From Candidatus Melainabacteria bacterium (GTDB lineage Bacteria; Cyanobacteriota; Vampirovibrionia; 2-02-FULL-35-15), in contig JACPSL010000036.1 of the NCBI GenBank assembly GCA_016193285.1, positions 1-64,000 of the forward strand: 64,000 nucleotides of DNA, written 5' to 3'. The position numbers and the translations under genes were made by a program. The stretch's first letter is position 1, and each line of letters starts with the position of its first letter. Shown piece after piece: positions 3,285 through 64,000 of this stretch. The notes beneath the pieces were generated by a model that had not been told where the DNA came from, made no database searches, and saw only the letters and a program-made list of their open reading frames with translations.

Positions 3285-4244
3285 TTATTTATGTAACTTT
3301 GCTGTTTTTAAAATAATTTCAACAAGCTCATCATAGTTTATGTCTGCTGCTTTTGCTTGTGCTGGTAAATCACTTAGATCAGTCATTCCAGGTAAAGAAT
3401 TTATTTCAAGTAAGTAAGGTTTATTGTTGTCACTCAATATAAAATCAACTCTTCCAAAAGAAGAACAACCGATGGCATAAAATACTTTTAATGAATCTGA
3501 TTTTATTTTTTTTACAATATCTTTTCTTATTTTTGCTGGTAATAAAAATTCGGTTAATCCTTTAATGTATTTAGCTTGATAATCATAAAATTCATTTTTA
3601 GGCTTTAGTTCTAAAATTGGTAAGACTTTTGGTTTATTATTAATTTCAATAATGCTAACTGTAATTTCTCTGCCTGGAATAAATTCTTCAATTAGATAAT
3701 CACAGTGATTGAAGTCTAATTTGTCTATAATTTTTTCTAATTCTAAAAAACTTTTTATCTTAAATGTATTTATGCTGGAGCCTTCTTCTCTGGGTTTTAA
3801 AAAAATAGCTTTATTTTTTTTGACAAGTTTTTCCCAGATAGTTTTTAAGTTTATTTTTTGTAGATTTGATTTACTAACTAAATAATATGGTGGAGTTAAA
3901 ATACTGAGATTTTGTGCTATTTGTTTTGTAATTAGTTTATCCATTGCAATAGCGCTTCCTAGGATAGAAGAGCCTGTGTAAGGAATCTGTAGCCATTCTA
4001 GTATTCCTTGAATTGCCCCGTCTTCTCCAAACTTTCCATGTGTAATTAAAAATGCAACTTCAATTTGTTTCTTTTTTAAATTAAATAAGTCATCTGTTTT
4101 TTTTATATCAATAAGAAAAGTATTTTTATAACCAAGTCTGATTAGTGCATCAAAACAATTCTTGCCTGATTTAAGTGATATTTCTCTTTCATTAGAAATG
4201 CCACCACATACAACACCAATTCTGGTATTTTTATTAATTCTCAT
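3285..4244 (-). CDS. ddl: D-alanine--D-alanine ligase
   Basis: ATP-grasp ligase that makes D-Ala-D-Ala for peptidoglycan. The N-terminus shows the family pattern GGISNEREISLKSG (about residues 15-28). Mid-protein has FLKPREEGSS and EEFIPGREITVSI, and the C-terminus has RVDFILSDN and the metal-binding EINSLPGMT. The 319-residue length is normal. Its stop lies 1 bp from the convergent dnaB stop. Not linked to other mur genes here. Confidence 0.96.
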   Translation of the reverse strand: MRINKNTRIGVVCGGISNEREISLKSGKNCFDALIRLGYKNTFLIDIKKTDDLFNLKKKQIEVAFLITHGKFGEDGAIQGILEWLQIPYTGSSILGSAIAMDKLITKQIAQNLSILTPPYYLVSKSNLQKINLKTIWEKLVKKNKAIFLKPREEGSSINTFKIKSFLELEKIIDKLDFNHCDYLIEEFIPGREITVSIIEINNKPKVLPILELKPKNEFYDYQAKYIKGLTEFLLPAKIRKDIVKKIKSDSLKVFYAIGCSSFGRVDFILSDNNKPYLLEINSLPGMTDLSDLPAQAKAADINYDELVEIILKTAKLHK

Positions 4245-26654: not shown

Positions 26655-27902
26655 ATGACATCATCACTTGCAATAAGTAAATATTTTGGAGAAGCATCTA
26701 GTAGTTCTAGTTCGCTCGGGAGGACTGTTCAAGTAGTCCAAGAAAGTGGAAGCGAGTTTATAAGAAGAGCTCCTGGATTTGGTCTTGGGGCAATATGTGT
26801 TGGTACTGGGACTGCAGCACTTGTTACAAGTGGTTTTGCAAAGTCTTTACTGCCTGATAATACAGCAGCAGATAAATTTTCAGTTTTTGGAATGATTGTA
26901 GGTGGAATTCTTGCCATATATGGTCTTGTAAAAATGTGGATTAGCGGGAATAAACAAGAAGTAAGCAATAACACTAGTGAAGCTAAGTATGAAGTAAATT
27001 TAAGTGATAGTGAAATAGATGAGCTAAGTACTACTACTGCTACATTAAGTTCAATAAATCAAGATCCTGTTTTTTCTTTTTCTCGTGACATTGTTGATGT
27101 TGCTAATAATAATCGAAAAGTTGATGCAGAGAAATTATATAAATTGTGGACAAAGGATGAAGGAGTATGTGGCTTTAGGGGCCCAGGTAAGATAGCTTTT
27201 TCAAGTCCAAAAGGTGGTTCGGCTTCTGAACTTACAGATGATGAGTATAGAGACAGACTAGCAGTCTTGATTGGATATATTATGGCAGGTAGATCTGATG
27301 ATACTTTCCTAACTAATATTACCGGTACAAAATTAAAATATTCTGATCTTATTGATCCAACAAAAGGTTGTAAATTCTCTCACTTACTTCCTCATGAGTT
27401 TAATTTAGTTTATATGGCAGCAAGAAACTTTAAAGAAGTATTGAAATCTGATACTAATATTCAAACTATTTTTCAGAATGTTGTTTCAGAGGTAAGTGTT
27501 CCAGGTAGAGATCCAGAATCAAAACTTAAAAATTATGTTAATGCTCATAATTATTTAAGAATACTGAAGTGTTCGATAGACTATGTCTTCAAAGCTGAAG
27601 AAGAACAAACTCTGGATAATGAAAAAGCAAGGAAAGTTGTACTTGTAAGATCTGCTCTTATAACTGGGCTTGGGTTAAAAGGAAATAAAAGCCAAATTAA
27701 TGCTGAGCTAAGAAAAATATTGAATGGTGATGCTCCTGAAAAGAGTCTTGTTGAAAAAATTAATAAATTAGCTGAGTATAAAGTAAGAGATGTTGTAGTA
27801 AACCAGTTACAAGCACAAGGCTATGGAATATCAGATGCAAAAATTGTGTTTGAAGATATCTTTCCTTCAAGTGAAGGCTTTATTGATTTAAAAACACCTT
27901 AG
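26655..27902 (+). CDS. Unrecognised protein with N-proximal membrane segments
   Basis: 415 residues. A Ser-rich N-terminus without a Sec signal, two hydrophobic helices (about 42-65, GFGLGAICVGTGTAALVTSG; about 76-95, FGMIVGGILAIYGLVKMW), then a 300-residue mainly helical soluble domain. The ATG has no Shine-Dalgarno; TAGTAT-like sequence lies just before it. Its stop overlaps queF by 4 bp on the opposite strand. No family recognised. Same style as the 25748 protein (glycine-rich helix pair plus soluble domain). Confidence 0.65.
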   Translation: MTSSLAISKYFGEASSSSSSLGRTVQVVQESGSEFIRRAPGFGLGAICVGTGTAALVTSGFAKSLLPDNTAADKFSVFGMIVGGILAIYGLVKMWISGNKQEVSNNTSEAKYEVNLSDSEIDELSTTTATLSSINQDPVFSFSRDIVDVANNNRKVDAEKLYKLWTKDEGVCGFRGPGKIAFSSPKGGSASELTDDEYRDRLAVLIGYIMAGRSDDTFLTNITGTKLKYSDLIDPTKGCKFSHLLPHEFNLVYMAARNFKEVLKSDTNIQTIFQNVVSEVSVPGRDPESKLKNYVNAHNYLRILKCSIDYVFKAEEEQTLDNEKARKVVLVRSALITGLGLKGNKSQINAELRKILNGDAPEKSLVEKINKLAEYKVRDVVVNQLQAQGYGISDAKIVFEDIFPSSEGFIDLKTP

Positions 27903-41221: not shown

Positions 41222-41241
41222 CTGAATGTAAAAGCATTCAG
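41222..41241 (+). promoter_or_regulatory. Inverted repeat before the 41271 gene
   Basis: CTGAATG (41222-41228) and CATTCAG (41235-41241) are perfect complements around TAAAAG, 29 nt before the ATG. Could be an operator or a leader hairpin. No regulator is identifiable. Confidence 0.4.
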
Positions 41242-41270
41242 ATTTGTTTTATAAAAGAGAGGCAATAACA

Positions 41271-41972
41271 ATGAGTGAATTAGATGGAATAGGAAATAAT
41301 TATAGTGTTCCTTCTTTACAAGCAACTCCAAAAGCTAGTGAAGTAGAAGCTAAAGATAAGTTAAAAGAAGCAGAGTCTTTAGAAGAAGCTACTAAAGAAC
41401 TTAAAAAGGAGGAAGAAGAGCTTCTTAAAGAAGCAGAAGAAAAGAAGAAAAAAGCTGAAGAAGCACAACTTTTAGAGCAGTACTATAGAGCTGCAGCAGC
41501 AGCGCTTAGAGCCTATGCACAAAAATTAGAACAAAATAATAAAGTCGTTAATGATACAGATAAAGAAATTACTCCGCTTGAACCAATTAATCCAACAATA
41601 AAGGATAAGGTTGAAGCTAAAATAGTTATCCCAAAAGGATTAACTGCTGCTCAGATTATAGAAATAGCTAAGAAATTAGAAAGACAAGCAGAAGTTTATG
41701 GAAAAGAACAAGAAAATTTACGAGACCAGGTTGATAGAATTCTAGAAAAGATAAAGGGTATTCAAGATAAATTAACACAAATAACAGAACTACAAAAGGA
41801 TATAAAAAATGATAATCGTTTAGATGTTCGTATGATGAAGGCAGCAGCATATAGTATGTTAGCCAGACTTAAAGCAGATAAAGAAGTTGAAAAGCTTGAT
41901 CAGCAGTTAAAAGCAGGTGTAGCTCTTTCTCAGCAAAAAGAAGCCGGGGAAAATGCCATGAGATTTAAGTAA
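41271..41972 (+). CDS. Unrecognised coiled-coil protein
   Basis: About 233 residues; almost wholly helical and charged. A Glu/Lys-rich coiled coil (about residues 25-65), an alanine-rich helix with YYRAAAAALRAYAQKL, a proline-containing linker, then a second coiled coil (about 125-185). No signal peptide or membrane segment. ATG 41271 is chosen because AGAGAGG lies 8 nt before it; an upstream TTG adds nine residues. Fifteen bp from the next gene, probably the same transcript. No family recognised. Confidence 0.65.
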   Translation: MSELDGIGNNYSVPSLQATPKASEVEAKDKLKEAESLEEATKELKKEEEELLKEAEEKKKKAEEAQLLEQYYRAAAAALRAYAQKLEQNNKVVNDTDKEITPLEPINPTIKDKVEAKIVIPKGLTAAQIIEIAKKLERQAEVYGKEQENLRDQVDRILEKIKGIQDKLTQITELQKDIKNDNRLDVRMMKAAAYSMLARLKADKEVEKLDQQLKAGVALSQQKEAGENAMRFK

Positions 41973-41987
41973 AAGAAGGAACTTGCT

Positions 41988-42455
41988 ATGTTTATTTTAG
42001 AAATAGATAGAGTTAATAATTTCATTCTAGGATTACCAAGTGGAATTCAAGGAGATTTGAATGGTGATGGGATTCTTGATACAGCACAATTTAGTCTCTC
42101 CTCTCAAGCAGGAAGAGCTGGTACATCATCACAATCTTCTGATAGTGATGATAGAAGGATAGCTGCTGAAGTACAAGCAGAGCTTAGTAGTATTTCGCAA
42201 ACAGTAACAGTGTCAGGTGGTGGCAGTAATGTTCATTCATCAGCACGGCAGGCAGCAGCTGCATATGGAAAAGCGGCTAATGCAGCCAAGAAAGCTGCAA
42301 CAATACAAAATTTGAACATTGCAAATCCTTTAGTATCTATGGCAGTTAGTGCAGTTGCTTTTTTCTCGCAAATGTTTGACATGTGGAACATTTTAATAAA
42401 AGAGAATACAAAGAAATTGAAGGAAAGCGTTGATAGTACACGAGCAGCTAGGTAA
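41988..42455 (+). CDS. Unrecognised small protein with EF-hand-like loop
   Basis: 155 residues. Starts MFILEIDR, similar to the MFILNING start of the 51-residue gene at 43042. A dockerin/EF-hand-like loop GDLNGDGILDTAQF (about 22-35) has the Dx[ND]xDGxxD calcium pattern. A serine/glycine-rich middle follows, then a hydrophobic segment (about 113-130, PLVSMAVSAVAFFSQMF) and a basic tail. AAGGA precedes the ATG. No known family. Confidence 0.65.
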   Translation: MFILEIDRVNNFILGLPSGIQGDLNGDGILDTAQFSLSSQAGRAGTSSQSSDSDDRRIAAEVQAELSSISQTVTVSGGGSNVHSSARQAAAAYGKAANAAKKAATIQNLNIANPLVSMAVSAVAFFSQMFDMWNILIKENTKKLKESVDSTRAAR

Positions 42456-42471
42456 ACCTTCTTTAGATTTT

Positions 42472-42711
42472 TTAAACACTTGCTAGTGTTTGTAGCTTGC
42501 TCTTAAAGATTTTAATGTCAGCTGCAGTTAATGCTGCACCTAAGTCAGCTAATTTCTGACCTTCTAAAGCTTGATAAATAAGCTCACCCTCTCTTTCCAT
42601 ATCTTGAGGAGTTGCTGTTTTATTTAATTTCTTTTGTTGTATATTAACTAACTCATGAGAAGCCATATTGAAAAGTGCTCTTCCTGTGTTAGCTATTGAT
42701 TGTCCATCCAT
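42472..42711 (-). CDS. Unrecognised 79-residue helical protein
   Basis: Entirely helical: an N-terminal ASHELVNIQQKKLNK helix, a TATPQDMEREGELIYQALEG turn-helix, and a C-terminal IKIFKSKLQTLASV. Size and two-helix layout recall secretion needle or rod subunits, but sequence identity is not evident and no secretion apparatus is in the window. AAGGA precedes the ATG by 9 nt. Convergent with the 41988 gene. Confidence 0.6.
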   Translation of the reverse strand: MDGQSIANTGRALFNMASHELVNIQQKKLNKTATPQDMEREGELIYQALEGQKLADLGAALTAADIKIFKSKLQTLASV

Positions 42712-43041
42712 ATTATATTTTCCTTCTTATTCTTAAATATTAGTTTGATCTATAAATAAAAAGCATCTTGTACACTTTTTTTGATAGTTATATTTCTCTG
42801 TTATTTTAAATAAATATTCTGAGAGGTTATTATATGGTTAAATATTTAAAAGCTTATATGTGTAGTTGAATTGAAAAAGATTTAACTAAGTTAAAGCCTC
42901 TTTAAGATGCTGTCATCTTAAAGAGGCTTTAGTATTAATATTCCGAGCTCTTGGATTTAACTCAGATCTACTGAAAGAGTCAATTAAAGGTCGACATGAC
43001 CTACGAGACTTAGTTTTCAATAGACCTTTAAGATTTCAGCT
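42712..43041. other. Gene-free hairpin-rich stretch
   Basis: No ORF worth calling. Contains the 17-bp hairpin listed separately, and an inverted repeat TTAAAGGTC (42984-42992) with GACCTTTAA (43023-43031) across 30 nt that also includes a short AGGTC/GACCT repeat. On the minus strand these follow the 43042 gene, so they may terminate or process its transcript. Confidence 0.5.
42893..42930. terminator. Perfect 17-bp hairpin
   Basis: Arms AAAGCCTCTTTAAGATG (42893-42909) and its exact complement (42914-42930) around CTGT. Calculated by eye it is the strongest hairpin in the window. T-rich sequence follows on the minus strand only after an AACTTAG spacer, so it may be a terminator for the 43042 gene or a stable RNA element. 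Confidence 0.6.
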
Positions 43042-43197
43042 TTAGACTGCTCTTAGTGTACCGAGCGAAGCCTGGAATTGCTTAATGTTTGCTTGTTTTA
43101 TTCCTTCATCAAGCTGTTTCTGTAAGGTTTCTCGTACCTTTGTATCTATCATAGCATCGGCAGCAGATTGCGCACCATTTATATTTAAAATAAACAT
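43042..43197 (-). CDS. Unrecognised 51-residue protein
   Basis: MFILNINGAQSAADAMIDT followed by an amphipathic helix (KVRETLQKQLDEGIKQANIKQF) and LGTLRAV. Strong AAAGGAG ribosome site 9 nt before the ATG. The first four residues and overall style match the 41988 gene product. Short, but the ribosome site and the clean open frame support translation. Confidence 0.55.
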   Translation of the reverse strand: MFILNINGAQSAADAMIDTKVRETLQKQLDEGIKQANIKQFQASLGTLRAV

Positions 43198-43547: not shown

Positions 43548-44351
43548 ATGGAATCACTTACAAAATTAGGCAAAGAACCACTTATGTGGCTTGTTGAGTT
43601 AGGAGAATCGTTTAAGTTCTTTATAATTGCTTTGGGCTTAATTTTTACTAATAAGTTCTCAAAGAAAGAGTTTATTCGTCAAGCAAGTAAGTTTGGGTTT
43701 GATACTTTGCCTGTAGTGGCAGTTGTAAGTTTTTTTATTGGACTTGCTTTAACACTTCAAATTTCAAAACAACTTATGGGTATTGGAAATACAAGCTCAC
43801 TTGGTACATCTGTTGCAGTTTCAATAGTTAGAGAAATTGGGCCAGTTGTTGCTGGCGTAATGATTGCAGCTCGAATTGGTGGTGCAATGGCAGCAGAAAT
43901 TGCAACAATGAGTGTAACTGAACAAATTGATGCTTTAAGAATTATGAAATTAAACCCAATAAGCTTTCTTTTTGCACCACGCTTACTTGCATCTATGATA
44001 ATGACACCACTTCTTACTGTGTTTGCAATTTATATTGGTAGCTTGGGCGGAATGATTATTGCTATTGTATATGTTCAGTTAGATCCTTATATGTTTTTTG
44101 ATTCTTTTAGATCAGTAGTTGGAAATAGAGACATAGTAATTGCTTTGTTAAAAGCTCTTGTAAATGGTGCATTAGTTGCTACGTTGAGTTGTAGTTTTGG
44201 AATGGAAGCAGCTGGTGGTGCTGCTGGTGTAGGTCAGACTACTACAAAATCTGTTGTATGGGCAATGCTTGGAATATTTTTATTTAATTTCTTAATTACA
44301 AATAGTGTATACTCTGTTGGTAAAGTATTGGATCCAGCATTTGTAAAATGA
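43548..44351 (+). CDS. mlaE: MlaE-type lipid ABC transporter permease
   Basis: Permease of the MCE/Mla phospholipid transport system between inner and outer membrane. Signature VVAVVSFFIGLALTLQ, GPVVAGVMIAARIGGAMAAEIATM and the conserved EQIDALRIMKLNP block (about 60-145). Five hydrophobic helices, 267 aa. Overlaps mlaF by ATGA. First gene of mlaEFD; periplasmic MlaC and lipoprotein MlaA are not adjacent. Confidence 0.94.
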   Translation: MESLTKLGKEPLMWLVELGESFKFFIIALGLIFTNKFSKKEFIRQASKFGFDTLPVVAVVSFFIGLALTLQISKQLMGIGNTSSLGTSVAVSIVREIGPVVAGVMIAARIGGAMAAEIATMSVTEQIDALRIMKLNPISFLFAPRLLASMIMTPLLTVFAIYIGSLGGMIIAIVYVQLDPYMFFDSFRSVVGNRDIVIALLKALVNGALVATLSCSFGMEAAGGAAGVGQTTTKSVVWAMLGIFLFNFLITNSVYSVGKVLDPAFVK

Positions 44352-45064
44352 CCCACCTCATTAAAGTGCAAAATGTAAGTAAGTCTTTTGATGACTTAAA
44401 TGTGTTGAGTAATATTTCCCTGATAGTAAGTTCTGGTGAAAGTGTTGCAATTGTTGGGCCGTCTGGAGTAGGAAAATCTACTTTACTTAGAATCATTTCT
44501 GGATTAGACATTCCAGATGTTGGCAAAGTTACTCTTAATACTGAAAAAATAAGTATGGTTTTTCAATATAGTGCTTTGTTAAATTCTTATACTGTTGGTG
44601 AAAATATATCTTTAGCACTTCATAACGGTAAACTAAGTAAGGAAGAACAACATAATAAAATAATTGAAAAATTACGTTTGGTAGGATTAGAAAGATATAT
44701 AGATTATTTCCCTGATCAATTGTCTGGTGGTCAAAAAAAAAGAATTGGTTTTGCAAGAGCACTTGCAGCAGATCCAGAAGTCATTCTTTATGATGAACCA
44801 ACTTCAGGATTAGATCCAATACTTTCTACTTTAATTGAAGATTATATAAATCAGTTGTCGAATGAATTTAAAGTTGCAAACTTAATAGTAACTCACCAAC
44901 TCTCTACAATAAAAAGAACAGCTCAAAGAGTTATTATGCTTTATAAAGGAAAGATTGTTTGGGAGGGTTCTTCAAAAGACTTTCTAAACTCAGATGATTC
45001 ATATGTGGCTCAATTTGTAAAAGCAGAAGTAAAAGGTCCTTTACTTAATAGCTTGCTAGAATAA
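44348..45064 (+). CDS. mlaF: MlaF-type ABC transporter ATPase
   Basis: ATPase of the Mla system: Walker A GPSGVGKST (about 38-46), signature LSGGQKKRIGFARA (about 126-139), Walker B VILYDEPTSGLDP and H-loop VTHQLSTIKRT. The Q-loop reads MVFQYSALL. 238 aa. Start overlaps the mlaE stop. Confidence 0.93.
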   Translation: MTHLIKVQNVSKSFDDLNVLSNISLIVSSGESVAIVGPSGVGKSTLLRIISGLDIPDVGKVTLNTEKISMVFQYSALLNSYTVGENISLALHNGKLSKEEQHNKIIEKLRLVGLERYIDYFPDQLSGGQKKRIGFARALAADPEVILYDEPTSGLDPILSTLIEDYINQLSNEFKVANLIVTHQLSTIKRTAQRVIMLYKGKIVWEGSSKDFLNSDDSYVAQFVKAEVKGPLLNSLLE

Positions 45065-45084
45065 TAGCTTGTTATAAAGGTAAA

Positions 45085-45693
45085 ATGAGACATATCAGTG
45101 AAATAAAAATCGGTGTATTTGCAATAACGGGTCTTATTTTGCTTGTTTTTGGCTGGGCCTTTTTAAGAGAATTTTCAGTTCAGGTACAACAAAAATTTAC
45201 AGTAGTTTATGATGATGTTGTTGGTTTAACTAAAGGATCTTTTGTAAGAATAAATGGACTAAGAGTTGGCCGGGTTGATAAATTAACCCTTGATACAGAA
45301 AATAATAAGGTATTGATTGATGCTAGAATTCAAATCCCAAAAGTTAATATTCCAAAAGACTCAAAGGTTTATATAAGAACAAGTGGTTATGTTGGTGATA
45401 AATATTTAGATATAGTTCTAGGAATGTCAAAAGTTTACATTATGGATGGAGAGGTGGTTCTTGGTGAACCTGCATTTGATGCATTTCAGTCTCTTGAAAA
45501 AGTTGGTCAGATTTTAAATCAAATTGATTCAAAAACAGTTGGTCAAAATATTCAAGATGTTACAAAAAATGCAAATATTGCAGTAAAGAAAGTAGCTACT
45601 GCAAGTGATGAAGTTTCAATGGCTTTAAATCAAAAATTCTTGTTGCCAAAATTATTATTTGGAAAATTAAAGACTAAAAGAGAAAAAACTTAA
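45085..45693 (+). CDS. mlaD: MlaD-type MCE domain protein
   Basis: One N-terminal membrane anchor (IKIGVFAITGLILLVFGWAFL, in part residues 6-26) followed by a single MCE domain (about 38-115: YDDVVGLTKGSFVRINGLRVGRV). The C-terminal helical tail is short, total 202 aa. Forms the hexameric periplasmic ring on MlaE. The stop overlaps moaE by 4 bp. Confidence 0.9.
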   Translation: MRHISEIKIGVFAITGLILLVFGWAFLREFSVQVQQKFTVVYDDVVGLTKGSFVRINGLRVGRVDKLTLDTENNKVLIDARIQIPKVNIPKDSKVYIRTSGYVGDKYLDIVLGMSKVYIMDGEVVLGEPAFDAFQSLEKVGQILNQIDSKTVGQNIQDVTKNANIAVKKVATASDEVSMALNQKFLLPKLLFGKLKTKREKT

Positions 45694-54620: not shown

Positions 54621-56222
54621 ATGGCAACAAGGGTTAACCCGATAAATAATAATTCTAATCTTGCAGTCAACTTAGTTCACCCAGGATTCAATGACTTCTT
54701 CAAGTGGATGAATGGAAAATTTAATCCAGAAGAGGCTAAGCAAAAAGGCTATTCAAATCTTTTTATAAAAACAAATGGTCTTATTTTAAATACTACAAAA
54801 TCTATTTGGAGTTTGCATCTTCCCCTACAAATTATTGGTTTATTTAGTGAAAGATTTCAAAAATTAGCAAAAGCATTTTATGGGGTGTGTTGGTCAATTG
54901 TTTATACCTCTCTTAGACCTTTTACTCCTGATAGAAAAACTTTAGGTGGCAATAAAGCTACACCACTTGTAAAAGAAGCATACAACTTAAATGAGCATTT
55001 TAGAGTTGGGATGGGAACAGTAGTTAGTGCACTTTATGGTGGTGGAGCATCTGGAATGTTATGGGGAGCAATTACAGGAGATGATAACTTCTTTGACAAA
55101 TCAGCAAAAGTTTATTCAACAGGAATGTTTAATCAAAATCAGATATTTGGTTCTATGAACCTAGAAAAACTTTTGTCAAGAAAGTTTAATAACAGCAGTG
55201 AACAATTGCCAGCCAAAGTAGACCAAGAACAAACTGGCGTTAAAGAAAAAATGGAGTTTCTTGATGCAGTACTTTTTATTCCAAATGTTATTGCAAGAGG
55301 ATTAGATACTGTGAAACTATTTGGGGGAGAATTAGGTGAAGGGTTACAAAGAAGCATCAATGCATTTGGAAAGTTTTCATATGGAACATGGGCTTGTAGA
55401 TTTGGGGAATTAAAGAAAAAGAAATCTAAAGAAGAAGATGGTTCAGAATATGGTGGAGATTTAGAACCTTTAAATCCAGATTTAGAAGGAGCTGCTGCAA
55501 AAGTTGATAAAACACTAAGAGCTACACAAGAAAAAAGCGCAAAAGTATTTCAAATAGTGATACCAGGACTTTCGTGGACATCTAGTTTACTTGAACTTGT
55601 AGGGCTTCATGAGCTATCTGAAAAAGTATTCAAGTGGGAAGGAATATTAGAAAGATTACATCCGACAATTGCAAGCTGGTGTATACGACATCCAATATTA
55701 AATTTATTTAAGAAAGTTGAAAGTAATCAACAAGAAATACAGAAGGAGGTTCGTGAAGATATATCAATTCATGAACAACATACTGCAACACAAGTTGAAG
55801 AAGAAGAAGAACCAGTTATACTTAGCTTTGTTGAATATGCAAAAAATAAGAGAGATGAAATAGAAAGAAAGAATGGAGAAAGTATGAAAGTTGATTTTAA
55901 TCTGGTTGAACTAGCAAAAACAAGTGGAGTAAACCCGGATCAGTTGAAAGAAGCTCTTAAATATGAGATAGAATTTCAAGGTGGATTGCAACAAAGTGAT
56001 CCTGGTATTGTAAGGCTGATTCAAGAAAATTACCCGGGTGATGTGATTCCTGAAATAGCTGATCGTGCAGATATTAAAACAGAAATTAAAAGAACTGCAG
56101 AAGAAATTGACGTACCTGATTGGATAATTTATCAGGCTCTAAGAATGGAATTGTTGGGTCAAAGAACAGGGTGGCCCGCTGATTATAGAAAGCTCAGAGA
56201 ACGAACCTCTCTCGCTGGTTAA
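54621..56222 (+). CDS. Unrecognised 533-residue protein
   Basis: Asn/Ser-rich N-terminus without a Sec signal (ATRVNPINNNSNLAVN), a semi-hydrophobic region (about 55-110 and 130-150, GVCWSIVYTSLRPF; VVSALYGGGASGMLWGA), then a charged helical C-terminus with acidic low-complexity EEEEEP. Two C-terminal helical repeats (about 410-455 and 490-533). TAGGAAG precedes the ATG. No family recognised. A decayed copy of its C-terminus follows downstream. Confidence 0.65.
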   Translation: MATRVNPINNNSNLAVNLVHPGFNDFFKWMNGKFNPEEAKQKGYSNLFIKTNGLILNTTKSIWSLHLPLQIIGLFSERFQKLAKAFYGVCWSIVYTSLRPFTPDRKTLGGNKATPLVKEAYNLNEHFRVGMGTVVSALYGGGASGMLWGAITGDDNFFDKSAKVYSTGMFNQNQIFGSMNLEKLLSRKFNNSSEQLPAKVDQEQTGVKEKMEFLDAVLFIPNVIARGLDTVKLFGGELGEGLQRSINAFGKFSYGTWACRFGELKKKKSKEEDGSEYGGDLEPLNPDLEGAAAKVDKTLRATQEKSAKVFQIVIPGLSWTSSLLELVGLHELSEKVFKWEGILERLHPTIASWCIRHPILNLFKKVESNQQEIQKEVREDISIHEQHTATQVEEEEEPVILSFVEYAKNKRDEIERKNGESMKVDFNLVELAKTSGVNPDQLKEALKYEIEFQGGLQQSDPGIVRLIQENYPGDVIPEIADRADIKTEIKRTAEEIDVPDWIIYQALRMELLGQRTGWPADYRKLRERTSLAG

Positions 56223-58024: not shown

Positions 58025-58642
58025 TTACTCTTTTATATCTTCTCCTAATTCATCTAAAATAGCTTGGTTATGCACTCCTATGAGCCATTGTGCAAAACCA
58101 TAAAATAATAAACCTATTGAAAAGAAAGCAAGGATTATATGATAGAGATTCTTTTTTATATTAGCAATGAAAAGTTTTACTGGATGTCCATCTTCTTTGC
58201 TAGTTGCAAGCGTCCCGTCGAGGTATTCTTCGCTATCGGGAATACCGTCGTTATCTATATCTAACTCGTTTCCTATTTCTTTTGCTAAATTCTCAGGATG
58301 GCTTTTAAGTTTTACAAATCCTTTCTTGCCTAAAATATAAATTAATTTATTTCCAAATTCATTTAAAATAGGACTATTAACTTTTTGGTGTGGTTCAAAA
58401 GCAGTTCTTGCTTCCATTAATTTTTTAAGTTCTTCTTTATTTAGTGATCCAATTTGACCAGGGCCATTCCCATCAGGACCGTCACTGTTTGTATGGCATA
58501 AAGCACAGTTTATATTCCTGCCAGATGTCTTAAGAGAGTATTCATAAAACTCAGAATAAGCATGTGCTTGTAACAAAGGTGTAGCTAAAACAAAAAGCAG
58601 GAAAGAGACTAAAAGAAAGACAAGCTTCACGTTTTTACCCAT
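58025..58642 (-). CDS. Membrane-anchored monohaem cytochrome c
   Basis: Signal peptide (about 1-28), one haem motif CALCH (Cys46, Cys49, His50), an EF-hand-like [13 protein letters not shown] loop (about 127-139), and a C-terminal anchor (about 168-190, [22 protein letters not shown]). 205 aa. No clear Met ligand motif can be assigned. Start overlaps the cytochrome b stop by 8 bp. It would sit in the periplasm as the c-type partner of the bc module. Confidence 0.82.
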
Positions 58643-59732
58643 CTCCTTTTATTAAATGAAAAATCATATCGCCAAATATTGTCATAATTACAAAATAAGA
58701 AAAAGCTAATATTGAAAGAAAAGTAAGCATCTTTCTACTTGTTCCAGCAAATATTTTTGGAACAAGAAATAACACAATAACTATAGTAGTAAGGGCAAGT
58801 ATAATTATCCAAAAAGGTAACAGCTCCATTGGGTAATATACGAAGAAAAAATACCATTCTGGTTTAATTCCTTCAGGTGTTGAACCCGAGGGATTATACG
58901 GCTCCATAAATGGATAAGCAAAAAATGATTCAAAAGGAATTGTAATAGCAAGTACAAATAAAATAAAAAAAGTAACAGTCCATAAGCTAAAATCTTTAAT
59001 TAAGAAATTAGGAAAAAACTTTTCAGAACTTTCAACGCTTCCATCTACCCCTTTACTCATTCCTTGTAATTGAACTGAAAGTAAATGAACTCCTAAAATT
59101 CCAAATATGAGTAATGGAAGAACAACAACATGAATTGAAAAAAACCTGCTTAATGTTTCTTGTCCTACTGTTTGTCCTCCTTGAATTAATTCAATTAACT
59201 TATTAGGTAATTCTGAAAAAGTACCAGGTAAATATGGACTAACTGCACCTATAAACTGTAAGCCAACTTTTGTAGCATTTACTGAAAGCTGATGCCATGG
59301 TAGTAGATAGCCAGTAAATGCAAATATAAAAGTAGTAAATAAAAGAAATACCCCACTCCACCATGTAACTTCTCTAGGTTTTTCAAATGCTTTCATTGCA
59401 AAGGTAGTTAATAAATGTATAATTGCAGCAAGTACCATTATTGAACTACTCCAAGAATGAAGATTTCTTATAACTGCTCCACCAGGTACTTTATCAGAAA
59501 TAAATTTTACAGAATCATATGCTTCTTCTATTGTTGGCTGGTAGTAAAAAAGTAAAAGAAGTCCTGTAATAAGCTGGATGATAAAAAGTAAAAGTGTTAG
59601 GCCACCAAGATAGTATGCCCATTTCATTTTATGATTAGGGACCTCCTTCTTCATAAGCATTGACTGTAAATTCATTTTTTCCAGGGGAAATCTTTCTTGT
59701 ATAAAGTTAGAAATTTGAATTAAAACATTCAT
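58635..59732 (-). CDS. Cytochrome b (fused b6/subunit IV type)
   Basis: Eight-helix cytochrome b, 365 aa. Haem ligands His92, His106, His201 and His216; the 14 residues between the last two are the b6-type spacing rather than the mitochondrial 13. The Qo motif PEWY lies in GIKPEWYFFFVYYPMELLPFW. The N-terminal b6-like and C-terminal subunit-IV-like parts are in one chain. Overlaps narI-Rieske by ATGA. Confidence 0.93.
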   Translation of the reverse strand: MNVLIQISNFIQERFPLEKMNLQSMLMKKEVPNHKMKWAYYLGGLTLLLFIIQLITGLLLLFYYQPTIEEAYDSVKFISDKVPGGAVIRNLHSWSSSIMVLAAIIHLLTTFAMKAFEKPREVTWWSGVFLLFTTFIFAFTGYLLPWHQLSVNATKVGLQFIGAVSPYLPGTFSELPNKLIELIQGGQTVGQETLSRFFSIHVVVLPLLIFGILGVHLLSVQLQGMSKGVDGSVESSEKFFPNFLIKDFSLWTVTFFILFVLAITIPFESFFAYPFMEPYNPSGSTPEGIKPEWYFFFVYYPMELLPFWIIILALTTIVIVLFLVPKIFAGTSRKMLTFLSILAFSYFVIMTIFGDMIFHLIKGDG

Positions 59733-61012
59733 GAAAATTCATTCCTTGGAATATAAACCTTATACTCACTGAATTTTGTTTTATTTATTTTATCTACGTT
59801 AGTTACAATTTTATTGCTTGAATCTTTTAAGACATATTTAATTTGTGAAAGTGGTTTTAGGGCAGGACCGTCAATTACATTTCCTGTTTTAATATCAAAA
59901 TGTGAGATATGACAAGGACAAAGGAGCTTTCCACCTTCAGCTTTACTTATAATTGTGCAACCTAAATGGGGGCATTTTGCAGAGTAAAGCATAGGCAGTC
60001 CGTCTTCTCCCTTAAAAGCAAGCCCAGGCTTCATTTCATAGTCAATAAAATATATGCCTTGATCATTCTTTAAACTTTTTAAATCCGCAATAAAAATAAA
60101 ATCCTTAGTTAATCGCTCATGTTCAAGTTCTTTTTGATAAGCTGCTGCTTTTATTTTTTCTAACCTCTTTTTTAATAGCTCAGCTTTTTCTTTTCTTGAT
60201 AAAGATGGCCCCATAAAAAATGGAATTACTTTGTCTATAATGCCAATAGCTAGAAGTACCATTCCCAGAGTAATACTTAAAATAGCTTTTAAAAAACGTC
60301 TTCTTGTTTCAGCTTGAGTTTTAGCAATCACTACTGCTTTCTTAGGCTCTCTAAAATTCCAAATCACTACTTGAGGTAATCTGTATAAGTACTCAAGTGG
60401 TAATGAAAACATGTGAACAAGCCTTGTAAAAGGAATCAGGAGTATTATTAGCCAAGCTAAAACAATGTGGGATTTAATGACAAAAGGCATATCCTTGACA
60501 TATGAAATATCAGGATTGAAGAATAAAATACTTAACACATAAGGACTAACTGTTCCTGGTGACCATGAAGCTCCCCATTTATATAAGGTAGCAGTTAAAA
60601 TTCCAAGAAATACTTGAACAGTTAAAAGTAGCAAAACTATAAGATCCATTGTTGAAGTAACTGCTTGAATTCTTGGATCCCTTAATCGCCTGATAAAAAG
60701 GATTACTAAACCTAAAAAAGCAAATAGTGCTGCAATTAGTCCCATACTTTCAAAGGTATAAAGTATTCTAATATCTGCAACTAGTGACTGTAAGAATTTT
60801 GGTGCAAAAAAAGCAACTCCATGCCATAAAATAATTAATCCAATACCAAGATGCCAAGGAACTGAACCCCAAAGTAGTTTTTCTTTTTCTAAAAATTGTG
60901 ATGATAAAGATGAAAAACCAAATTTGTTTGAGTTAAATCTATAGATAGATACAAAAATTACAGAAAATAATGCTATGTATGGAAGTCCAATTAAAAGAAA
61001 GAAGTCATGCAT
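59729..61012 (-). CDS. NarI nitrate reductase gamma subunit fused to a Rieske protein
   Basis: Residues 1-220 are a NarI cytochrome b: five helices with haem ligands His54, His64, His182 and His200, matching the E. coli spacing 56/66 and 187/205. Residues 237-243 TRRRFLK form a Tat-like motif before a sixth helix (about 244-267). A helical linker (270-300) leads to a Rieske domain: CPHLGC (Cys347, His349, Cys352) and CPCH (Cys365, Cys367, His368), complete for a 2Fe-2S centre. Both domains appear intact. No stop or frameshift separates them. I know of separate NarI and Rieske subunits in nitrate reductases; this in-frame fusion is the unusual feature. Confidence 0.93.
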   Translation of the reverse strand: MHDFFLLIGLPYIALFSVIFVSIYRFNSNKFGFSSLSSQFLEKEKLLWGSVPWHLGIGLIILWHGVAFFAPKFLQSLVADIRILYTFESMGLIAALFAFLGLVILFIRRLRDPRIQAVTSTMDLIVLLLLTVQVFLGILTATLYKWGASWSPGTVSPYVLSILFFNPDISYVKDMPFVIKSHIVLAWLIILLIPFTRLVHMFSLPLEYLYRLPQVVIWNFREPKKAVVIAKTQAETRRRFLKAILSITLGMVLLAIGIIDKVIPFFMGPSLSRKEKAELLKKRLEKIKAAAYQKELEHERLTKDFIFIADLKSLKNDQGIYFIDYEMKPGLAFKGEDGLPMLYSAKCPHLGCTIISKAEGGKLLCPCHISHFDIKTGNVIDGPALKPLSQIKYVLKDSSNKIVTNVDKINKTKFSEYKVYIPRNEFS

Positions 61013-61559
61013 GTCTTAACTCCTTTACTATACTTAACTCTGCAATTTTTTTTATAGCCGTGAGTAAATATTTATATGGATTTGAATTGTTATTTTTGTT
61101 TTCAAGCTCCTTTAACATTAAATTGATTGGATGAATTACACATTCAGCAAGAAGGGTATTATACTTATCTTTATCATTAAGACTGGAAGCAAGTTTTAAG
61201 ATTTGTGAAATATGATCTGGCAATTCACTGTTGTTGTTTAAATTATTTTCTTTATATGCTTGCTTTAAACGTGTCATGAGAGTACCTCTTTTATAACCAT
61301 CTTCACCAAATATATGAACTCCAATATAAGGAGTACAAGCAGGATTTAATTCAAAAGTTTTTACATAAAGCTCTTGTAATTTTTCTTTTGAATTTTCTTT
61401 TACAAAAGATGAAAATTTATTAAATAGATTTTTAATTTCTTTAACCTCGTTATCAAAATTATTTAACATAGTTTCACAACTATTTAGTAAGTTACAAAAA
61501 CCATCTTGTGGATATTCCAAGAGTTCTGCAAGTGAGTAAAAGTTATTTTTTTGATTCAT
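61005..61559 (-). CDS. narJ: Nitrate reductase molybdenum cofactor assembly chaperone
   Basis: NarJ/TorD-type helical chaperone: LAELLEYPQDGF near the N-terminus, ELYVKTFELNPACTPYIGVHIFGEDGYKRGTLMTRLKQAY in mid-protein, and DHISQILKLASSL. 184 aa. Overlaps narH (TAATG) and the narI-Rieske start (8 bp). Acts on NarG before membrane attachment. Confidence 0.93.
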   Translation of the reverse strand: MNQKNNFYSLAELLEYPQDGFCNLLNSCETMLNNFDNEVKEIKNLFNKFSSFVKENSKEKLQELYVKTFELNPACTPYIGVHIFGEDGYKRGTLMTRLKQAYKENNLNNNSELPDHISQILKLASSLNDKDKYNTLLAECVIHPINLMLKELENKNNNSNPYKYLLTAIKKIAELSIVKELRHA

Positions 61560-63052
61560 TAAAATCCTCTCCTTGGCTCTTTTATCTCTCCATATCCTGT
61601 GCAGCCCTTACAAACTTCTGGTTCTTTAGTAACCATTGCTTCTTCTCTTTGAATTGGTGGTAAGACAAATCTTTCGTTTACAGTTGCAAGAGAAGTTATT
61701 TTATATATTTCTTCAGCTTCATTTTCAGTAAGATATGCTTCTCTCATTATTTCATACACTTTACCGTTATCTAGATCTCCTAACTGCTGCATCCTTTTAA
61801 AATAACGTACAGCCATCATTTTCTTTAATGCATAAGTAATAATTTCTTCATTTCCTGCACTAAATAATTTTGCAAGATATTTTATGGAAAGTCTTGCATG
61901 TTCTAAGCTTGTAAAAAATTCTTTGGCTGAATGATCATATAATCTGTTTACAACTTTTCCTAAAACAGGAAGTAATGGAGGGACATAAAAAAGCATTGGT
62001 GATGTTCTATACTCTGGATGTAATGGTAGAGCTAATTTCCATTCAACAACATATTTATAGACAGGCGAATTACAAGCAGCATCAAGGAAATTGTCACTTA
62101 TTCCATTTGCTTTAGCAGCTTCTATAATCTTTGGATCATATGGATTTAAGATTATTTTTCTTTGAGACTCAACTAAGCTATGTTCTGGAACTTTCATTGC
62201 TTCTTGTATTTGTTCTGCGTCATAAAGTAAAACTCCTAAATATCTTATTCGCCCAACACATGATTGGAAACATGAAGGAGGCTGCCCTGTTTCAAGTCTT
62301 GGATAGCATAATATGCATTTTTCAGCTTTTCCTGTTTTCCAGTTATAATACATTTTTTTGTATGGGCAAGCTACAATACAAGCACGCCAGCCTCTGCATT
62401 TATTCTGATTAACAAGTACAATACCATCTTCTCCTCTTTTATAAAGTGCTCCTGATGGACAAGCTGCTACACAAGAGGGGTTCACACAATGATTACAAAT
62501 TCTTGGGAGATACATCATTGAAATATTTTCAATTTCCATCATTAAGTCTCGTTCATCCTGAGATAAACTTTGAAGATTAGGATCATTTTTTGCATAAAGG
62601 TTTGAGCCACCAAGATCATCATCCCAGTTTGGCCCAGCTTTAATCTCTACTTGTTCTCCTGTTATTTTTGATATTGGAATTGCAGTTGGTTGATCATCAC
62701 TTAAAGGTGCATTAAATAAATCTTCATATTTATATGTCCACGGTTCGTAATAATCATCAAGACCAGGCATATTTGGATCATAAAATAACTGTAATAAACT
62801 TTGTAATTTGTTATCTGTTTTTTTTAGTTTAAGTTTATCTTTAACTAATTCCCATCCACCATTGTACTTTTCTTGATCTTCCCATTTAATAGGGAAACCT
62901 GTTCCTGGCTTGGTTTCTACATTATTCCACCACATATATTCTGTACCTTCACGATCAGTCCAGATATTTTTACAGGAGACACTACATGTGTGACAACCTA
63001 TACATTTATCTAAGTGAAATACTACTCCTACTTGTGCTCTTACATCCGTCAT
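61559..63052 (-). CDS. narH: Nitrate reductase beta subunit
   Basis: Electron-transfer subunit with four Fe-S clusters. Cys17, Cys20, Cys23 and Cys27 (CIGCHTCSVSCKN); CNHCVNPSCVAACP; CRGWRACIVACPYKK with Trp replacing a Cys as in [3Fe-4S] NarH; and CILCYPRLETGQPPSCFQSCVGRIRYLG. 497 aa, within the normal range. Between narG and narJ. Confidence 0.97.
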   Translation of the reverse strand: MTDVRAQVGVVFHLDKCIGCHTCSVSCKNIWTDREGTEYMWWNNVETKPGTGFPIKWEDQEKYNGGWELVKDKLKLKKTDNKLQSLLQLFYDPNMPGLDDYYEPWTYKYEDLFNAPLSDDQPTAIPISKITGEQVEIKAGPNWDDDLGGSNLYAKNDPNLQSLSQDERDLMMEIENISMMYLPRICNHCVNPSCVAACPSGALYKRGEDGIVLVNQNKCRGWRACIVACPYKKMYYNWKTGKAEKCILCYPRLETGQPPSCFQSCVGRIRYLGVLLYDAEQIQEAMKVPEHSLVESQRKIILNPYDPKIIEAAKANGISDNFLDAACNSPVYKYVVEWKLALPLHPEYRTSPMLFYVPPLLPVLGKVVNRLYDHSAKEFFTSLEHARLSIKYLAKLFSAGNEEIITYALKKMMAVRYFKRMQQLGDLDNGKVYEIMREAYLTENEAEEIYKITSLATVNERFVLPPIQREEAMVTKEPEVCKGCTGYGEIKEPRRGF

Positions 63053-63064
63053 TCTTTATAATAT

Positions 63065-63085
63065 AGTTTCAGACAAGCTGAAACT
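63065..63085 (-). promoter_or_regulatory. Intercistronic hairpin between narG and narH
   Basis: AGTTTCAG (63065-63072) pairs with CTGAAACT (63078-63085) around ACAAG. A second inverted pair CAAATCC/GGATTTG and a repeat GACAAATCC lie between it and narG. The narG-narH gap (119 bp) is the widest in an operon otherwise overlapping. Could stabilise or attenuate the transcript. Confidence 0.45.
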
Positions 63086-63171
63086 TCCCGTGACAAATCC
63101 AAGTAGCTTGATCGGATTTGCCAAATAAATTGGACAAATCCTACACTTGCAAGTAAGTTGAAAATGAAGCA

Positions 63172-64000
63172 TTAAAATTTGACCTCCTTAAGCTTTTTAA
63201 CAATTACATGAGTTTCTCTATTAACACCTGGAGGCCCCCAATAGTTAAAAGCATAACTAAACTGAGCATAACCTCCAACCATAAAAATTGGTTTTAGTCT
63301 TATACGGGTTAAACTATTGTGGCCACCTGCTCTTTTCATTCCATATGTTGGTGATTTTGGAACTGAGAGAGTTCTTTCTGGTGAGTGATAAATCATACAA
63401 ATACCTCTTGGAAGTCTTGAACTTACACATGCTCGTGTACACACAACACCATTGTCATTAAAGACTTCAACCCAGTCATTATCTTCTACACCAATTAAAT
63501 CTGCATCCTTATCATTTATCCAAAGCGGTTCAACTCCTCTTGATAAAGTCTTCATGCGAAGAGTATCTCCAAATGTTGAATGTATTCCCCATTTCCCGTG
63601 CGGAGTTAAATAATTTAAAATAATGCTATTACTTCCTTCATTACTTGTTTTTGCAATATCACCGTATGTCATTGCATCTATTCTTGGTTTATGAGTTGGA
63701 AGATGTTCACCAAAAGCTATATATGCTTCATGATCTAAATAAAAATGTTGTCTTCCAGTTAATGTTCTCCATGGAATTCTTTCTTCTACATTAAGTACGT
63801 ATGAAGAATAAGTTCTATTATTGTTTATATTTCCTGACCAAAATGGTGTTGTAAGAATTCTAGTAGGGGCACTAATGATATCTTGAAAGTTAACCCTGAC
63901 TCCTCTAGTATCTTTTGCAAGATGAGTTAAATCTAATCCTGTCTTTTTTGATTCTGCTTCAAATGCCCTGTATGCAAGTTCACCATTAGTTTCTGCTGCA
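63172..64000 (-). CDS. narG: Nitrate reductase alpha subunit, C-terminal part (partial)
   Basis: The frame is open from the right edge through an internal ATG (63672) to the stop at 63172, about 276 residues. [42 protein letters not shown] and MIYHSPERT are diagnostic NarG C-terminal sequence (molybdopterin-binding domain). NarG is usually about 1,200 aa, so roughly the last fifth is present. The N-terminus, with or without a Tat signal, lies beyond the window. Confidence 0.95.

What the first reader, a model, noticed from the sequence alone, without database searches (positions are those of the whole stretch)
41222..43197. Cluster of small unknown proteins with shared style
Four adjacent genes (233, 155, 79 and 51 aa) lack recognisable domains and Sec signals. 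Three have purine-rich ribosome sites, while many neighbours have none. Two begin MFIL. They are helical or coiled-coil and one has an EF-hand-like loop. Together with the 25748, 26655 and 54621 proteins they may be lineage-specific secreted or structural proteins. Similarity in layout to needle/rod/translocator sets is speculative.
Basis: inference. Interest (0 to 1): 0.65.

Follow-up and report, generated by a model that had tools for sequence, protein, structure and literature searches.

The report
Lineage-wide "MFIL" secretion-signal candidate
Two of four small unknown proteins in this genome begin with the same six-residue start (MFIL-x-I) that we find on some two dozen otherwise unlike proteins across one family of non-photosynthetic cyanobacteria, where it is possibly the export tag for a flagellum-type secretion machine that all these genomes carry.

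Summary
The four ORFs are real and look like genes. No Pfam or NCBIfam family matches any of them, and no clear relative of the 155-aa or 79-aa protein turned up in 60 related genomes. The "MFIL" start shared by the 155- and 51-aa proteins is the informative clue. In 11 genomes of the window's family (Caenarcaniphilales-like, class Vampirovibrionia/Melainabacteria), 24 of 74 DNA matches to MF[IL][LF]x[IVM] are starts of ORFs, mostly orphan proteins (19 with a Shine-Dalgarno), against 1 of 29 (0 with SD) in ten genomes of other families. These proteins share little beyond that start: some carry EF-hand/dockerin-like loops (as the 155-aa protein does), many are low-complexity, cysteine is depleted (0.32% vs 1.11%), and some sit in clusters. 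Every family genome has one type III export gate of a divergent flagellar kind, in a class-wide clade apart from ordinary flagellar FlhA. Hydrophobic residues 2-5 are the published N-terminal export signal of early flagellar subunits. Best reading: MFIL is an export signal for this machine and the cluster is one substrate locus. The motif family is well supported; export is inference. Needle/rod/translocator identity is not supported. The 25748, 26655 and 54621 proteins lack the motif.

The parts
41271..41972 (+). P233: 233-aa coiled-coil-type protein (MSELDGIGNNYS...), first gene of a likely two-gene + strand operon with P155
   Evidence: no Pfam/NCBIfam match above noise
41988..42455 (+). 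P155: 155-aa protein, MFILEID start, EF-hand-like loop, Ala-rich and hydrophobic C-terminal helices
   Evidence: local similarity to the dockerin-like modules of MFIF protein L028:7549 in G006, LPSGIQGDLNGDGILD / LPWGIKGDLNHDGQLD, 0 of 200 shuffles as good
41988..42005 (+). codons of the N-terminal signature M-F-I-L-E-I in P155
42054..42089 (+). EF-hand/dockerin-like loop D-L-N-G-D-G-I-L-D-T-A-Q in P155 (position 12 is Q, not D/E)
   Evidence: sequence; loop pattern in 8 of 27 MFIL proteins vs 5 of 169 control proteins
42472..42711 (-). P79: 79-aa all-helical protein, convergent with P155, C-terminal 28 residues resemble those of P51
   Evidence: single-sequence AlphaFold2 helices 3-29, 35-51, 63-78, pLDDT 74; no match in 60 relatives at E<0.1; tail alignment shuffle p = 0.025
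42890..42933 (.). 20-bp inverted repeat (hairpin) between P51 and P79; likely terminator
   Evidence: seen as a self-match
43042..43197 (-). P51: 51-aa protein, MFILNIN start, helical-looking tail ending IKQFQASLGTLRAV like that of P79 (IKIFKSKLQTLASV)
   Evidence: weakest of the four as a gene by codon usage
43180..43197 (-). codons of the N-terminal signature M-F-I-L-N-I in P51

Best explanation
P155 and P51 belong to a family-wide class of otherwise dissimilar proteins whose common feature is the extreme N-terminus M-F-[IL]-[LF]-[QNED]-[IV], usually behind a good ribosome-binding site. (1) Shown: this signature exists and is concentrated on orphan ORFs of this family of non-photosynthetic cyanobacteria, in some genomes in clusters. 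(2) Shown: each of the 11 family genomes searched, this one included, encodes a single divergent flagellar-type FlhA, and this genome has the rest of the export gate. (3) Inferred: the hydrophobic residues 2-4 and 6 act like the N-terminal hydrophobic signal (residues 2-5) that early flagellar subunits need for export, so MFIL proteins are unchaperoned substrates secreted to the cell surface or medium. (4) Inferred: P233 (coiled coil) and P79 (helical, tail like P51) are co-produced partners, that is, co-secreted or assembly partners. The Ca-binding-type loop of P155 and the Cys depletion fit a life outside the cytoplasm.
For: Motif census: 24/74 start-like ORFs in the family vs 1/29 in ten other-family genomes, p = 0.0017; with SD, 19 vs 0, p = 0.0013. 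In G000, 2 of 3 genome-wide matches lie 1.2 kb apart in this cluster. Clusters in G004:C11 (five in 10 kb) and G005:C58. Residue 5 is Q/N/E/D in 26 of 27 proteins but K in 15 of 45 matches that do not start ORFs of 50 aa, so the constraint is on the amino acid; codons vary. Cys 0.32% vs 1.11%, p = 5e-14. Gate: FlhA/SctV + FliI/SctN, FlhB/SctU, FliN/SctQ-FliP-FliQ-FliR, FliJ/SctO and a FlgE/F/G-like protein; FlhA in all 11 family genomes and FliF in the 10 relatives; rod operon FlgF/G-like, FlgB, FlgC, FliE, FliF in G004. Hydrophobic residues 2-5 needed for export of early flagellar subunits: Bryant et al. 2022, PMC8983047.
Against: FliF was not found in the window's own genome; with 96% completeness and 39 contigs a gap is possible, but so is loss. 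The MFIL genes are not next to the export genes. P79 and P233 do not start MFIL. A gate-recognition motif 26 or more residues downstream, the second published signal, was not looked for. The sister families have the same second gate but almost no MFIL start, so the signal would have to be family-specific. P155 and P79 have no clear relatives by ordinary search in 60 genomes, so each is known from one genome. P233 and P51 were not searched for on their own.
Confidence: 0.4

Rival explanations
1. The MFIL start is a real conserved N-terminus but marks another route or role: a short hydrophobic docking, degron or self-assembly strand for intracellular or surface structures, unrelated to the type III gate.
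For: The signature is family-specific while the gate is class-wide. MFIL genes are not linked to gate genes. Cys depletion and low complexity also suit structural or assembly proteins.
Against: EF-hand/dockerin-like loops and Cys depletion favour the outside of the cell. The hydrophobic position 2-5 matches a known type III signal. No Sec or Tat signal is visible by eye in these proteins.
Confidence: 0.32
2. The MFIL start is a translation-initiation effect: AT-rich first codons (ATG TTT ATT TTA) favoured for strong expression in 32-36% GC genomes, with no role in the protein.
For: TTT, ATT/ATA and TTA are the commonest codons at positions 2-4, and most of these genes have SDs.
Against: Codons vary (TTC, ATC, CTA, CTG). 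Lys is avoided at residue 5 although it is the commonest residue there in matches that do not start ORFs. Other-family genomes of similar GC (G013-G016, G019, G020) show only 1 such start. Ordinary window genes do not start this way.
Confidence: 0.1
3. The four genes are a needle/rod/translocator set of an injectisome.
For: A type III gate exists in the genome. P79 is small and all-helical. P155 has long hydrophobic helices.
Against: No match to any needle, rod or translocator model. The cluster lies between ilvH-like and mlaE-like genes, not with the machine. Family relatives have flagellar-type rod genes. P79 has no significant structural match.
Confidence: 0.08
4. Unrelated orphan genes: P155 and P51 share MFIL by chance, and the cluster is a patch of fast-evolving cytoplasmic or prophage-remnant genes.
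For: P155 and P79 have no clear relatives by sequence. The P79-P51 tail similarity is modest.
Against: The census, the clustering in other genomes and the P155 loop similarity to another MFIF protein.
Confidence: 0.1

Closest known systems
Early (rod/hook-class) flagellar type III export substrates, e.g. [quoted passage not shown] 2022, eLife, PMC8983047)
   Same: Hydrophobic residues immediately after Met; no cleavable Sec-like signal by eye; a flagellar-type gate encoded in the same genome
   Different: MFIL proteins have no rod/hook domain, the hydrophobic block is a fixed F-[IL]-[LF]-x-[IV], and a downstream gate-recognition motif was not looked for
Partial flagellar gene sets of Melainabacteria (Soo et al. 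2014, PMC4040986; Utami et al. 2018, PMC5877343)
   Same: The export and basal-body genes seen here are presumably of the same kind as these subsets, reported as unable to encode a functional flagellum in several genomes
   Different: Here they resolve into a separate, class-wide FlhA clade, carried as the only copy by this family, and are tied to candidate substrates
Dockerin / EF-hand (type I dockerin-like) calcium-binding repeats
   Same: P155 and 7 other MFIL proteins carry the D-x-[DN]-x-[DN]-G-x-[ILV]-D type core
   Different: P155 has a single loop with Q at position 12 and no Pfam dockerin/EF-hand match; the others have 2-8 loops and no cohesin partner was looked for

Membership tests
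Type III needle / inner rod proteins (SctF, SctI) | Match to a needle or rod family profile | tested here: not met
   No Pfam match at E<=1 for P79/P51 and no NCBIfam match at E<=0.1
Type III needle / inner rod proteins (SctF, SctI) | Small protein forming a helical hairpin | tested here: inconclusive
   P79 predicted as three helices, pLDDT 74 from a single sequence; no PDB match with E<=0.001
Type III needle / inner rod proteins (SctF, SctI) | Gene linked to type III machinery | tested here: not met
   Window neighbours are ilvH-like and mlaEFD-like genes; gate genes lie on contigs C18, C19 and C25. Note that the gate genes are themselves scattered.
Type III translocators | Hydrophobic helices plus coiled coil | tested here: inconclusive
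   P155 has a long 109-154 helix, partly hydrophobic, and P233 is Lys/Glu-rich coiled-coil type; no profile match
Early flagellar (rod/hook-class) type III substrates | Hydrophobic residues 2-5 | tested here: met
   P155 MFILEI, P51 MFILNI; 27 MFIL proteins in the family. Not met by P79 (MDGQSI) or P233 (MSELDG)
Early flagellar (rod/hook-class) type III substrates | Gate recognition motif >=26 residues downstream | not tested
   Spacing rule read in PMC8983047; no motif scan was made on the MFIL proteins
Early flagellar (rod/hook-class) type III substrates | Rod/hook (Flg_bb_rod, Flg_bbr_C) domain | tested here: not met
   No Pfam match in the four proteins; a different protein, L029:752-1639, has FlgE/F/G-type domains
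Early flagellar (rod/hook-class) type III substrates | Actual export through the gate | not testable with these tools
   Needs a secretion assay
Flagellar-type type III export apparatus (genome level) | FlhA, FlhB, FliI, FliP, FliQ, FliR | tested here: met
   FlhA and FliI score below NCBIfam equivalog cut-offs of both flagellar and injectisome models, the flagellar models scoring higher
Flagellar-type type III export apparatus (genome level) | FliF / SctJ MS ring | tested here: inconclusive
   Not found in G000 but present in all 10 family relatives, one of them a sub-cut-off fragment
Complete flagellum | Flagellin, hook, motor | not tested
Dockerin / EF-hand domain | Match to a dockerin or EF-hand profile | tested here: not met
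   None in P155 at E<=1; only the loop core is present
Sec-secreted proteins | Basic n-region, 8-15-residue hydrophobic core and cleavage site | tested here: inconclusive
   By eye only: MFILEID.., MFILNIN.., MSELDG.., MDGQSI.. lack it; no predictor was run
Type VI / contractile systems | Sheath, tube, baseplate genes | not tested
   No search made

The most novel reading that the evidence does not exclude
A non-canonical flagellar-type type III secretion system runs through non-photosynthetic cyanobacteria, and in Caenarcaniphilales its substrates are a large, fast-evolving set of orphan proteins addressed by a fixed hexapeptide, MF[IL][LF]x[IV]. That would be a short, readable type III export code that lets substrates be predicted from sequence.
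Probability: 0.33. Interest if true: 0.85.

Novelty: new variant of a known kind. Interest (0 to 1): 0.6.

Why it matters
Type III export signals are notoriously hard to define from sequence. A fixed N-terminal hexapeptide shared by dozens of unrelated proteins in one lineage would make substrates predictable. It would also suggest a function for the puzzling partial flagellar gene sets of dark cyanobacteria, which have been read as remains of motility, and would point to a secretion system in a group that includes gut residents and a predator of algae.

Tried and rejected
Pfam and NCBIfam searches of the four proteins gave only noise. Sequence searches of 60 related genomes with P79 and P155 gave weak hits; the P155 hits to G006 and G003 became useful because both matched proteins start MFIF/MFIL. 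A genome-contig scan with P155 found no relative. Single-sequence structure models were too weak to place a fold, and the PDB search with the P79 model was null. P79-P51 similarity was not seen by BLASTP but shows as a modest tail match by local alignment (the stronger p was for a tail picked by eye). An initial idea that the system lacks FliF throughout was rejected: all 10 relatives have it. The idea that the 533-aa protein at 54621 and a 516-aa protein near the FlhA locus are homologues was rejected. The raw number of motif matches is not above the reversed-pattern control; the signal is in what the matches are, not in their count.

Full report
What is there. The four ORFs exist at the stated place: 41271-41972 (+, 233 aa), 41988-42455 (+, 155 aa), 42472-42711 (-, 79 aa) and 43042-43197 (-, 51 aa). 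The first two are 15 bases apart on one strand; the 79-aa gene converges on them; a 20-bp inverted repeat at 42890-42933 separates the 79- and 51-aa genes. Open-frame chances and codon usage support the three longer ORFs and the 51-aa ORF only weakly. All four have an SD core, where about one in five window genes has one. No Pfam or NCBIfam family is matched above noise.

Where it is. The window lies on a 70.7-kb contig of a 1.81-Mb, 39-contig, 96%-complete genome. The nearest FlhA in named genomes is from a 'Candidatus Caenarcanales' bacterium (66% identity), then Gastranaerophilales (45-47%).

The clue that mattered. P155 and P51 both start MFIL-x-I. A pattern with an SD found only three such places in the genome: these two and a 264-aa orphan protein starting MFILLAPTP. 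Weak P155 hits in two relatives turned out to start MFIF and MFIL as well. A frame-blind DNA pattern for MF[IL][LF]x[IVM] was then run over 21 genomes and the surroundings of the matches were fetched and classified. In the 11 genomes of the window's family, 24 of 74 matches are starts of ORFs of at least 50 aa, 19 of them with an SD. In ten genomes of other families it is 1 of 29, and 0 with an SD (p = 0.0017 and 0.0013). The total number of matches does not exceed the reversed-pattern control, so the argument rests on their being gene starts. Several other-family genomes have the same GC, so AT-richness is not the reason. Residue 5 is Q/N/E/D in 26 of 27 proteins although K is common there in matches that do not start ORFs of 50 aa. 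Three of the 27 (L072, L078, L135) failed the strict start test but have an SD and were kept by hand for the composition work; matches count proteins, not independent events, and some cluster members are paralogues.

What the MFIL proteins are. They are mostly unlike each other after the first six residues: low-complexity Gly/Asn/Thr/Pro-rich, coiled-coil, or repeats of EF-hand/dockerin-like loops. Cysteine is 0.32% against 1.11% in control proteins (p = 5e-14), and the loop core occurs in 8 of 27 against 5 of 169. They occur in clusters, for example five in 10 kb on G004:C11 and several on G005:C58, next to other orphan helical proteins, which is the layout of the window cluster. P155's loop region aligns with one repeat of an MFIF protein of G006 (LPSGIQGDLNGDGILD / LPWGIKGDLNHDGQLD; none of 200 shuffles as good).

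The machine. The genome encodes FlhA/SctV and FliI/SctN side by side, FlhB/SctU beside a sigma factor, and a FliN/SctQ-FliP-FliQ-FliR run with a FliJ/SctO-like and a FlgE/F/G-like protein nearby. FlhA and FliI fall below the equivalog cut-offs of both flagellar and injectisome models. FlhA is found once in every family genome (in two of them split over contig ends). Several other families have two: an ordinary flagellar copy and a second one. The family's copies group with the second ones in a clade with full support, though some long branches meet in that tree. FliF is present in all ten relatives but was not found in this genome. In G004 the FliF operon also holds FlgF/G-like, FlgB, FlgC and FliE genes. 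So this is a flagellar-type machine, not an injectisome, in the genomes where the operon could be read. Partial flagellar gene sets in this class have been reported (PMC4040986, PMC5877343). I found no paper that treats them as a secretion system or reports the MFIL start, but the library holds only open-licence papers. Flagellin, hook and motor genes were not searched for, so a complete flagellum is not excluded.

How it probably works. Early flagellar subunits are docked by a gate recognition motif and need hydrophobic residues at positions 2-5 for export (PMC8983047). MFIL places hydrophobic residues at 2, 3, 4 and 6. The simplest account is that it is this family's version of that signal, with orphan proteins as substrates. 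This step is inference: no export was shown, no downstream docking motif was looked for, and the genes are not linked to the machine. P233 and P79 lack the start and are placed with the substrates only by neighbourhood and, for P79, by a modest tail similarity to P51.

Verdict. The motif family itself I hold at about 0.9, its role as a type III export signal at about 0.4.

Noticed in passing
G012, G017, G018 and f1 genomes; L003, L084-L105: Two FlhA lineages in the class: ordinary flagellar copies and a second divergent clade present in at least six families, with its own FliF.
   Followed up: partly
L126:1586-2557 and 3871-4200 (G014, family f5): Orphan proteins within 10 kb of the second-type FliF/FlhA operon share a different N-terminus, MG[ML]xASQxRxLxLxxxxxxxEYxxQ; possibly the export signature of the sister family.
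   Followed up: no
L028:5047-8628 (G006) and L064:1209-5206 (G004): A large protein with a Sec-like start (about 795 aa) is followed by an MFIF protein with EF-hand/dockerin-like repeats in two genomes, suggesting a conserved pair.
   Followed up: no
L018:10353-11432: FlhB/SctU has NPDH where NPTH is usual at the autocleavage site, and is followed by a sigma-70-type factor on the same strand.
   Followed up: no
L025:8665-9435: FliQ/SctS carries a Pro/Gln-rich tail of about 180 residues after the normal 75-residue domain.
   Followed up: no
L030:15740-16759 and window 26655-27902: Orphan proteins with Ser-rich N-termini and a pair of apparent membrane segments resemble each other in layout; function unknown.
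   Followed up: no
window 58025-63672: Nitrate-reductase-like subunits sit directly beside cytochrome b, Rieske-like and cytochrome c genes (identified by eye), suggesting a combined respiratory operon; unusual if the order is strictly anaerobic as reported (PMC5877343).
   Followed up: no
window 43548-45693: An MlaE-MlaF-MlaD-like lipid transport operon lies directly beside the cluster (by eye).
   Followed up: no
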